From: Pseudomonadota bacterium
Lineage (GTDB): Bacteria; Pseudomonadota; Alphaproteobacteria; SP197
Length of the DNA: 53,982 nucleotides
Assembly (NCBI GenBank): GCA_027592745.1
Contig: JAQCLG010000003.1
Location: 1 to 53,982, forward strand
Direction of reading: 5' to 3'
In this document: positions 15,694 through 22,694 of the stretch, piece by piece
How the letters are laid out: each line of letters starts with the position of its first letter
Numbering within the stretch: the first letter of the stretch is position 1
Made by a program: the position numbers and the translations under genes
The notes under the pieces: generated by a model
The model's database searches: none
What the model was told of the DNA's origin: nothing
Seen by the model: the letters and a program-made list of their open reading frames with translations, nothing else

Positions 15694-15999
15694 ATGTACA
15701 AGATCGACCCCGCCAAGACCGAGCTCGCCAAGGAGTTCAAGGAGAAGCCCTTCGGCCCGCACAGCGCGGAGCTGCAGAAGGTGCTGAACGTCATGCGCTG
15801 GGAGCCGGTCGAGGGCAAGTACGTGCTGGTCAACACCGTGCCGCACAAGGAATGGTGCCTGGCCCAGCTTCCGGGCAAGCGCGGCGTGCCGATCAAGGTC
15901 CACGAGGACGTCAAGTTCACAGACCTGGGCGAAGCCGAGTGGCACATCTTCAAGATGCGCTGGAAGAAACACACGGGCGCCGACCTGGCGCTCGACTGA
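15694..15999 (+). CDS. N,N-dimethylformamidase small (alpha) subunit-like protein
   Basis: KPFGPHSAELQKVLNVMRWEPVEGKYVLVNTVPHKEWCLAQLPGKRGVPIKVHEDVKFTDLGEAEWHIFKMRWKKH. Pattern PFG..S..LQ+V.N.+R.+P..GKY resembles the DMFase small subunit as recalled. Immediately upstream of DMFase-like large subunits. Confidence 0.7.
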   Translation: MYKIDPAKTELAKEFKEKPFGPHSAELQKVLNVMRWEPVEGKYVLVNTVPHKEWCLAQLPGKRGVPIKVHEDVKFTDLGEAEWHIFKMRWKKHTGADLALD

Positions 16000-16013
16000 G
16001 CCCGGCCGATACG

Positions 16014-20481: not shown

Positions 20482-22694
20482 AGAGACTGCTGGGCTATTG
20501 CGACGAGATCCGTGTCCGCCCGGGCCAGACCATCAACTTCAAGGTCTCCAGCGAGGATGCCGGCAAGTTCCGCCTGGACATCGTGCACGTTCGCAGCGGC
20601 GACGACACGCCGTCGGGCCCCGGCCTGAAGGAACGCGTGGTCGATGCCGCGGTCAACGGCAGCTTCCCGGCGCGCTACCAGTGGACCCAGGTCGGCAGCT
20701 ACGTGGCGGTCGAGAATACCGCGCCCTTCGCCCTGCAGAGCTTCACGCTGCAGTGTTTCATCTGGCCGACCCTGCTGGAGAAGGAGGACCAGGTCCTGAT
20801 GGGCGCCTTCAACCGGGCCGACAAGGCGGGGTACGCCCTGGCGCTGGAAAACGGCCAGGTGGTGCTGCGGATCGGCGACGGCAAGAGCGTCGAGACCCTG
20901 GCCTCCGGCGCGGCGATGGACCAGCACCGCTGGTATTTCGTCGCGGCAAGCTTCGATGCCGAGAGCGGCAAGGCCCATGTCGTGCAGGAACCCCTGCTGC
21001 GCTACGCCGGCGATCGCGGCAAGGCGAGCGTGGAAGGCACCATGAAGCTGCGTCCGGGCGACGGCGGCCGTTTCCTGATCGCAGCCTGCAACGACCGGCG
21101 CGAGGGAAAGCTCATCGCCGCCGCCCATGCCAACGGCCGCATCGATGCCGTGACCGTGGCCAGCCGCGTGCTCTCGCGCGCCACGATGGAGCGCCTGAAG
21201 GGCCGCAGCGTGCCGCGCGACATCGCCAACGACGTCGTCGCCATGTGGGACTTCTCCAGGGAGATGGACGGGGTCGTGGCCCATGACGTCTCGGTCAACC
21301 GGCACCACGGCGCCATCGTCAACATGCCGACGCGCGCGACCAAGGGCTGGAACCACGACGGCAGCGAGATGGTCTGGACCCACAAGCCCGAGCACTATGG
21401 CGCGATCCATTTCCACGACGACGACGTCTATGACTGCGGCTGGGAGACCGACGCCTCCTGGACCCTGCCCGACGACATCGCAAGCGGCACCTACTGCGCC
21501 CGCCTGACCCAGGGCGACCAGTGGTTCTACATCCCCTTCTACATCCGCCCGCACACCGGCAAGCCCAAGGCGCGCCTGGCCCTGCTGATCGCCACGGCGA
21601 GCTACTACGCCTACGTCAACAACCACATGGGCGTGAGCTGGGGACCGCTGGGCGAACACTGCAGCAACGGCTTTGCCGTGCTCGACAATATCGATCTGCA
21701 CCTGCACATGCATCCCGAGCACGGCGTCTCGATGTACGACTTCCACAACGACGGCTCGGGTGTGGCCTATGCCTCGCGCCTGCGCCCGTTCCTGCACATG
21801 GGGCCGCGCGACAGCCTGTGGCAGTACAACGCCGACACGCACATCACCGACTGGCTGGAGGAGAAGGGCATCGCCTTCGACGTCATCGTCGACGAGGACA
21901 TGCACGAGGAAGGCGTCAGCCTGCTCGAGCACTACGACTGCGTCATGACGACGACCCATCCCGAGTACTACACGACCGAGATGATGCATGCCCTGCTGCA
22001 CTACCAGGACCGCGGTGGGCGTTTCATCTACATGGGCGGCAACGGCTTCTACTGGCGCGTCGCGTTCAATCCGAAGATGCCGGGCGCCATGGAGATGCGC
22101 CGCGCCGAGGACGGTATGCGGAGCTGGATCGCCGAGCCGGGCGAATACTACATGAGCTTCACCGGCGAACTGGGAGGCCTGTGGCGGCGCAACGGCATCG
22201 CGCCCGAGGCAATCTGCGGCACCGGCTTCTCGGCCCAGGGCTTCAATGCCGGGCGGCCCTATTACCGCATGCCCGACAGCGAGAACCCGCGTGCCGCCTG
22301 GATCTTCGACGGCATCGGGCGCGACGAGCCGATCGGGGATTTCGGCACCGTGTTCGGCGCCGCGGCGGGCAGCGAGATCGACAGCGTCGACTTCGAGATC
22401 GGCACGCCGCCCCACACCCTGGTGGTCGCCCATGCCGACGACTTCGGCGTCGACTTCCACTGGGTCAAGGAGGAGCACCAGCATGCCCACTCCGCGGTGA
22501 ACGGCGAGAACAACCCCCATGTCATCTGCGACATGGTGTTCTACGAGACCCCCAACGGCGGCGCGGTCTTCTCGACCAGCTCCATCGCCTTTGCCGGATC
22601 GCTCGCCCACAACAACTACGACAACAACGTCTGCCGCCTGCTGGAAAACGTGGTCACGCGCTTCTGCGACCCCGAGCCGATCCCGGCCCCCTGA
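20478..22694 (+). CDS. N,N-dimethylformamidase large (beta) subunit-like protein, paralogue 3
   Basis: YCDEIRVRPGQTINFKVS, ATASYYAYVNNHM, VSMYDFHNDGSGVAYASRLRP, NADTHITDWLEEKG, TTHPEYYTTEM, MGGNGFYWRV. 4-nt ATGA overlap with paralogue 2. Confidence 0.87.
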   Translation: MKRLLGYCDEIRVRPGQTINFKVSSEDAGKFRLDIVHVRSGDDTPSGPGLKERVVDAAVNGSFPARYQWTQVGSYVAVENTAPFALQSFTLQCFIWPTLLEKEDQVLMGAFNRADKAGYALALENGQVVLRIGDGKSVETLASGAAMDQHRWYFVAASFDAESGKAHVVQEPLLRYAGDRGKASVEGTMKLRPGDGGRFLIAACNDRREGKLIAAAHANGRIDAVTVASRVLSRATMERLKGRSVPRDIANDVVAMWDFSREMDGVVAHDVSVNRHHGAIVNMPTRATKGWNHDGSEMVWTHKPEHYGAIHFHDDDVYDCGWETDASWTLPDDIASGTYCARLTQGDQWFYIPFYIRPHTGKPKARLALLIATASYYAYVNNHMGVSWGPLGEHCSNGFAVLDNIDLHLHMHPEHGVSMYDFHNDGSGVAYASRLRPFLHMGPRDSLWQYNADTHITDWLEEKGIAFDVIVDEDMHEEGVSLLEHYDCVMTTTHPEYYTTEMMHALLHYQDRGGRFIYMGGNGFYWRVAFNPKMPGAMEMRRAEDGMRSWIAEPGEYYMSFTGELGGLWRRNGIAPEAICGTGFSAQGFNAGRPYYRMPDSENPRAAWIFDGIGRDEPIGDFGTVFGAAAGSEIDSVDFEIGTPPHTLVVAHADDFGVDFHWVKEEHQHAHSAVNGENNPHVICDMVFYETPNGGAVFSTSSIAFAGSLAHNNYDNNVCRLLENVVTRFCDPEPIPAP

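What the first reader, a model, noticed from the sequence alone, without database searches (positions are those of the whole stretch)
15694..22694. Tandem expansion of N,N-dimethylformamidase-like large subunits behind one small-subunit-like gene
A ~101-aa ORF resembling the DMFase small subunit is followed within 15 nt by three co-oriented ~740-aa DMFase-large-like genes (1 nt gap, then an ATGA overlap), ending at a strong terminator. DMFase is described as an alpha2beta2-type enzyme with one small and one large subunit gene. Here one small subunit may serve several large subunits, giving mixed assemblies or different substrate ranges. The paralogues share the same N-terminal motif (Y.D.+..R.G.T+...S), a LamG-like middle region and C-terminal NGFYWR / NVLRRF blocks, but have diverged extensively. 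Substrates and subunit pairing are unknown.
Basis: partly seen in the sequence, partly recalled or inferred. Interest (0 to 1): 0.87.

Follow-up and report, generated by a model that had tools for sequence, protein, structure and literature searches.

The report
One small, three large amidase subunits
An uncultured alphaproteobacterium carries an operon with one small and three different large subunit genes of the iron enzyme family that splits dimethylformamide; the arrangement is conserved in its relatives, while almost everywhere else each small subunit gene has a single large partner, so one small subunit probably serves three enzymes whose substrates are unknown.

Summary
A 101-aa ORF (15694-15999) is followed by three co-oriented ORFs of 738-745 aa. 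All three are clear N,N-dimethylformamidase (DMFase) large-subunit homologues (PF20254; PDB 6lvb_A, E<=5e-145) with every iron ligand and catalytic residue kept. The 101-aa ORF is a remote but real DMFase small subunit: single-sequence E=0.8, profile E=1e-4, AlphaFold model matches 6lvb_B (TM 0.74). Natural small-large fusion genes occur in this genome, its relatives and Stella vacuolata.

Large 1 and 2 are sisters; large 3 belongs to another subfamily whose nearest outside relatives have their own adjacent or fused small subunit (monophyly of the three rejected, AU p=2e-5). The small-large-large(-large) block is conserved, mostly behind groEL, in eight related genomes, one of them on a single 3.4-Mb contig. 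It is rare elsewhere: of 80 GTDB small-subunit loci, only this lineage has more than one full large gene behind the small one. Most likely the one small subunit serves all three large subunits, each with its own amide substrate.

The parts
15694..15999 (+). DMFase small (alpha) subunit homologue, 101 aa
   Evidence: profile E=1.1e-4 to 6lvb_B; AF2 model matches 6lvb_B, TM 0.74; 26 homologues; dN/dS 0.09-0.17
16014..18251 (+). DMFase large-subunit homologue 1 (745 aa, GTG start)
   Evidence: PF20254 297.7 bits; 6lvb_A E=5e-145; ligands Y399/Y440/E521 and H519/N547 kept
18253..20481 (+). DMFase large-subunit homologue 2 (742 aa); sister of large 1, missing in four relatives
   Evidence: PF20254 274.4 bits; 6lvb_A E=5e-149; ligands kept; tree
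20478..22694 (+). DMFase large-subunit homologue 3 (738 aa); different subfamily, related to naturally fused small-large proteins; pocket residue F693 replaced by His
   Evidence: PF20254 292.3 bits, Laminin_G_3; 6lvb_A E=5e-149; tree; residues
22728..22753 (+). hairpin after large 3 (GGGGCGTCGC-GCAA-GCGGCGCCCC, then GTTTGT), probable operon terminator with a weak T tract (coordinates approximate)
   Evidence: fold of 22718-22768: -34 kcal/mol, z -4.4; not listed by the scan
15563..15582 (+). terminator-like hairpin upstream, between the HTH gene (15224-15511) and the small-subunit operon
   Evidence: fold z only -1.7
42889..45114 (-). related but separate: a further DMFase large-subunit homologue without an adjacent small subunit, in a conserved dipeptidase/FrhB/MlrC operon

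Best explanation
This is a chromosomal, vertically inherited operon of the DMFase enzyme family in which one small subunit is co-produced with three different catalytic large subunits. Each large subunit is predicted to be a three-domain (Ig-like, pentraxin/LamG-like, ThuA-like) Fe(III) amidohydrolase with a 2-Tyr-1-Glu iron site that hydrolyses an amide to acid plus amine, each with its own substrate. The small subunit most likely binds each of the three large dimers, wedged at the dimer interface and lining the substrate entrance, as in Paracoccus DMFase. The operon was assembled, not simply expanded in place: large 1 and 2 look like an old duplication, and large 3 comes from a subfamily that elsewhere has its own adjacent or fused small subunit and here appears to rely on the shared one. 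Shown: homology, catalytic residues, operon layout, conservation, tree positions, purifying selection. Inferred: that the small subunit binds all three, that each is active, and that substrates differ.
For: Family and active site. Small subunit identity. The small subunit is a physical partner in this family: natural small-large fusion ORFs in G000:C187, G001:C81 and G008:C30 and Stella vacuolata L209; frames of equal length for both parts also in G010, G011 and G014. The Paracoccus large subunit is inactive without the small one (PMC7686228). Layout conserved in G001, G012, G015, G009 (three large) and G006, G008, G011, G014 (two large), with hisA-like/groES/groEL upstream in five of these; G006 is a single 3.4-Mb contig plus one more, with 2 small and 4 large genes. 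Only 4 small for 10 large genes in the window's genome even with a broad profile. Large 3 groups with small-carrying or fused relatives (UFBoot 99-100). All four genes have dN/dS 0.09-0.23. The shared small subunit evolves slowly relative to its large partners (slope 0.52, 95% 0.34-0.78; C52 family of the same bacterial family 1.48, 1.18-1.89), as expected if several partners constrain it.
Against: No direct test of binding. Several conserved clades of large genes in these genomes have no small gene beside them, so a large subunit may work without a small one or borrow one in trans. At 286 columns conserved in small-associated large proteins, no signature separates orphan from small-associated ones, so sequence does not say who needs the small subunit. 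The slow rate of the small subunit overlaps that of the Bradyrhizobium family, which has one full large gene (0.65, 0.33-0.97). The small-subunit tree is too weak to show which large gene was its original partner.
Confidence: 0.6

Rival explanations
1. The small subunit serves only large 1 (its direct neighbour, as in ordinary DMFase operons); large 2 and large 3 work as small-independent homodimers that merely share the transcript.
For: Several clades of large genes lack any adjacent small gene and most keep all catalytic residues. In 80 GTDB loci the small gene is almost always followed by one large gene only.
Against: The nearest relatives of large 3 outside this bacterial family have their own adjacent or fused small subunit, so loss of dependence would be needed; the Paracoccus large subunit alone is inactive (PMC7686228).
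Confidence: 0.27
2. The few small subunits are genome-wide shared partners that serve orphan large subunits in trans as well as the operon's own.
For: 10 large against 4 small genes in the window's genome and 4 against 2 in the near-complete relative G006; orphan large proteins keep the conserved columns.
Against: No evidence of co-regulation or binding; the conserved columns may be catalytic or structural rather than interface.
Confidence: 0.1
3. The extra large genes are decaying or non-enzymatic duplicates.
For: Large 2 is missing from four relatives and has the lowest family score of the three.
Against: dN/dS 0.17-0.23 for large 2 and 3, no stops in the window's copies, all iron ligands kept across species.
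Confidence: 0.03

Closest known systems
N,N-dimethylformamidase DmfA1A2 of Paracoccus (PDB 6lvb; pAMI2 of P. aminophilus)
   Same: Same small- and large-subunit families, same gene order small then large, same Fe ligands Y399/Y440/E521 and H519/N547.
   Different: Three large genes instead of one; small subunit 101 aa instead of 132-141, lacking the N-terminal extension; large 1 and 2 keep the pocket Phe of position 693, large 3 has His; no LuxR-type regulator gene next to the operon.
N-acetyl-(R)-beta-phenylalanine acylase (PDB 8huy, 8i59, 8i5a)
   Same: Homologous over the whole length (401-471 bits), same Tyr/Tyr/Glu positions in the alignment.
   Different: Lower score than DMFase for all three; shows that the family also accepts larger N-acyl amino acids.
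Natural small-large fusion proteins (G000:C187, Stella vacuolata L209)
   Same: Both DMFase-family subunits; the fused large part is near large 3 in the tree.
   Different: One polypeptide with a fixed 1:1 ratio, the opposite solution to a shared small subunit.
G003:C12 and G005:C65 clusters of the same bacterial family
   Same: One small subunit gene of similar type followed by three or two large genes.
   Different: Their last two large genes belong to other subfamilies than large 1-3; in G005 other short ORFs lie between small and large.

Membership tests
DMFase large (beta) subunit family | significant match to DMFA2_C (PF20254) and to 6lvb_A over the full length | tested here: met
DMFase large (beta) subunit family | 2-Tyr-1-Glu iron ligands plus His519 and Asn547 | tested here: met
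   all five identical in L1, L2, L3
DMFase small (alpha) subunit family | sequence-profile homology and same fold as 6lvb_B | tested here: met
   low identity (24%)
DMFase small (alpha) subunit family | gene directly upstream of a large-subunit gene | tested here: met
DMFase holoenzyme | alpha2beta2 assembly with one small per large subunit | not testable with these tools
   no complex prediction or coordinates available
DMFase holoenzyme | one small-subunit gene per large-subunit gene in the operon | tested here: not met
   one small, three large genes
DMFase (the enzyme) | hydrolysis of N,N-dimethylformamide to formate and dimethylamine | not testable with these tools
   large 3 is only 38-40% identical to its Paracoccus plasmid-encoded relatives; family membership does not establish this substrate
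single in-place tandem expansion | the copies form one clade | tested here: not met
   delta lnL 229, AU p=2.5e-5

The most novel reading that the evidence does not exclude
A promiscuous small subunit is the common partner of three diverged catalytic large subunits, which also form mixed dimers (L1-L2, L1-L3) whose active sites borrow the pocket loop (position 693) of a different neighbour, so that one operon yields a combinatorial set of iron amidohydrolases.
Probability: 0.15. Interest if true: 0.7.

Novelty: new variant of a known kind. Interest (0 to 1): 0.45.

Why it matters
DMFase is the model for a strained 2-Tyr-1-Glu iron site, and its small subunit is a fold of unknown origin with an unclear role. 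A natural case with one small subunit for three large ones, and in the same genomes fused and apparently small-free versions of the same enzyme, makes the question of what the small subunit does directly testable. It also shows that this amidohydrolase family is large (10 copies in one 3.8-Mb genome) in uncultured alphaproteobacteria, where industrial dimethylformamide is unlikely to be the natural substrate.

Tried and rejected
Looked for columns of the large subunit that are conserved in small-associated proteins but lost in orphan ones, to mark a small-binding surface and test L2 and L3: none found; inconclusive. Tried to learn from the small-subunit tree whether the small gene came with large 1 or with large 3: 98 columns are too few and the quick constrained trees were poorly optimised. 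NCBIfam gave no match for any of the four proteins, and the local Pfam copy lacks PF26354, the accession attached to all 26 homologues of the small subunit, so its name could not be read. Considered an assembly artefact: rejected, since the block recurs in independent assemblies and in a near-complete genome. Did not use the second structure prediction: the tool returns no coordinates, so it could not settle the interface. No paper on multi-large DMFase operons was found in the open library; subscription papers were not searchable.

Full report
What is there. The window holds four tightly packed co-oriented genes: a 101-aa ORF at 15694-15999, then ORFs at 16014-18251, 18253-20481 and 20478-22694, with junctions of 14 nt, 1 nt and a 4-nt ATGA overlap. 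The three long proteins match Pfam DMFA2_C at 274-298 bits and the Paracoccus DMFase large subunit 6lvb_A over their whole length with E between 5e-145 and 5e-149; the next PDB relatives are the N-acetyl-(R)-beta-phenylalanine acylase structures. They are 43-49% identical to each other. The iron ligands Y399, Y440 and E521 and the catalytic residues H519 and N547 named in PMC7686228 are identical in all three; the pocket residue F693, contributed by the neighbouring large subunit, is Phe in large 1 and 2 and His in large 3.

The small gene. A profile of 20 homologues finds 6lvb_B as the only PDB hit at E=1.1e-4. The AlphaFold2 model (pLDDT 92) has 6lvb_B and 6lvv_B as top structural matches, TM 0.74, rmsd 1.6, and the profile also finds the annotated DmfA1 on Paracoccus aminophilus pAMI2. 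In one search all 26 homologues carry Pfam accession PF26354, which the local copy does not hold.

Physical partnership. In the same genome (contig C187) the small and large parts form one uninterrupted 859-aa frame, with the same in G001:C81 and G008:C30 and in Stella vacuolata (L209). Three further genomes (G010, G011, G014) list both parts in a frame of the same length. An internal start cannot be excluded for a single case, but conservation of the open linker across genomes argues for real fusions. Together with the published finding that the Paracoccus large subunit is inactive alone (PMC7686228), this makes the small protein a functional partner in the family.

How common is one small for several large? 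In 80 GTDB loci found with the small-subunit profile, those with more than one full-length large gene directly behind the small one all belong to this bacterial family (L139-L145 and L147). In an even sample of 296 genomes of the class 64 have the large family, and by the coordinates tightly packed co-oriented large genes occur only in the own family and possibly in G218:C290. On plasmids, one small plus one large is the rule in the six records looked at.

Conservation. The block is found in G001, G012, G015 and G009 with three large genes and in G006, G008, G011 and G014 with two (large 2 missing); hisA-like, groES and groEL lie upstream in G001, G012, G015, G009 and G006, and the hisA-like gene in G004 and G007. 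In G012 and G009 another gene lies between large 2 and 3, and large 3 of G009 is split by a frame change. G006 (two contigs, 3.4-Mb main contig) has two small and four large genes, so missing small genes are hardly an assembly gap there. All four genes are under purifying selection (dN/dS 0.09-0.23).

Origin. Each of the three large genes forms an orthologous group with full support (100). Large 1 and 2 are sisters together with the first large gene of G003 (98). Large 3 joins a gammaproteobacterial protein with its own small gene (L151; 100), then the fusion proteins (91), then L200 and G050:C10, also with small genes (99). Forcing the three into one clade costs 229 log-likelihood units (AU p=2.5e-5). 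The cluster is therefore best read as a duplication plus a recruited third gene. G003 and G005 have a similar small gene followed by other large subfamilies.

Does the small subunit serve all three? For: the operon has no other small gene; a broad profile finds just four in the genome against ten large genes; the outside relatives of large 3 carry their own; and the shared small subunit changes slowly relative to its large partners (slope 0.52, 95% site bootstrap 0.34-0.78) compared with the dedicated small subunits of the C52 family in the same bacterial family (1.48, 1.18-1.89). Against: one single-partner family (Bradyrhizobium, 0.65, 0.33-0.97) overlaps, orphan large genes are common, and a search for columns lost in orphan genes found no signature. 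I put sharing at about 0.6.

Chemistry. The family signature predicts hydrolysis of an amide at a mononuclear iron site. No substrate can be assigned. The acylase homologue and a Variovorax operon that combines the family with a class III aminotransferase and an ABC transporter suggest that N-acyl amino compounds are at least as plausible as dimethylformamide (inference). Downstream, convergent genes encode a TauD-type dioxygenase, a cupin, an SDR and an FMN/FAD oxidoreductase with Oxidored_FMN and Pyr_redox domains (SDR from its ORF and position), mostly conserved in G001, G012, G015 and G009, which would fit oxidation of a released product, but they form another transcription unit.

Noticed in passing
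window 23075-24253 (+): Rieske oxygenase alpha-subunit gene (PF00355 and PF00848) broken by an in-frame TAG at 23492-23494; the syntenic locus of G001 lacks the gene, with TauD directly after large 3. Either an inserted pseudogene or a sequence error.
   Followed up: partly
window 42889-45114 (-): A fourth DMFase-type large gene of the window, without small subunit, in the order M19 dipeptidase, large, FrhB-like, M81/MlrC, SDR; the order is conserved in G001:C16 and G015:C10. An ABC transporter with an extracellular solute-binding protein and an ALDH-like gene lie nearby in the window.
   Followed up: partly
L071:4750-7326 (G000:C187), L093, L124, L209:10001-12538: Natural fusions of DMFase small and large subunits in one frame.
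   Followed up: yes
L073:4805-6994 (G000:C69): Orphan large protein in which the iron ligand Tyr399 is aligned with His (2 of 19 orphan sequences); 10 of 96 small-associated ones have Phe or Trp there, so the 2-Tyr-1-Glu site is not universal in the family.
   Followed up: partly
L167-L169, L173, L176, L177, L180, L182, L201, L206 at about 12930-13650: In Bradyrhizobium and Enhydrobacter a weak, split match to the large subunit (about 30 and 57 bits) follows the normal large gene: a short PF20254-like protein or remnant.
   Followed up: no
L107 (G037:C1), L125 (G008:C52), L126 (G008:C76): Shorter PF20254 proteins (open frames of 546-725 aa) that score only 28-47 bits to the large-subunit profile: a divergent subfamily.
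   Followed up: no
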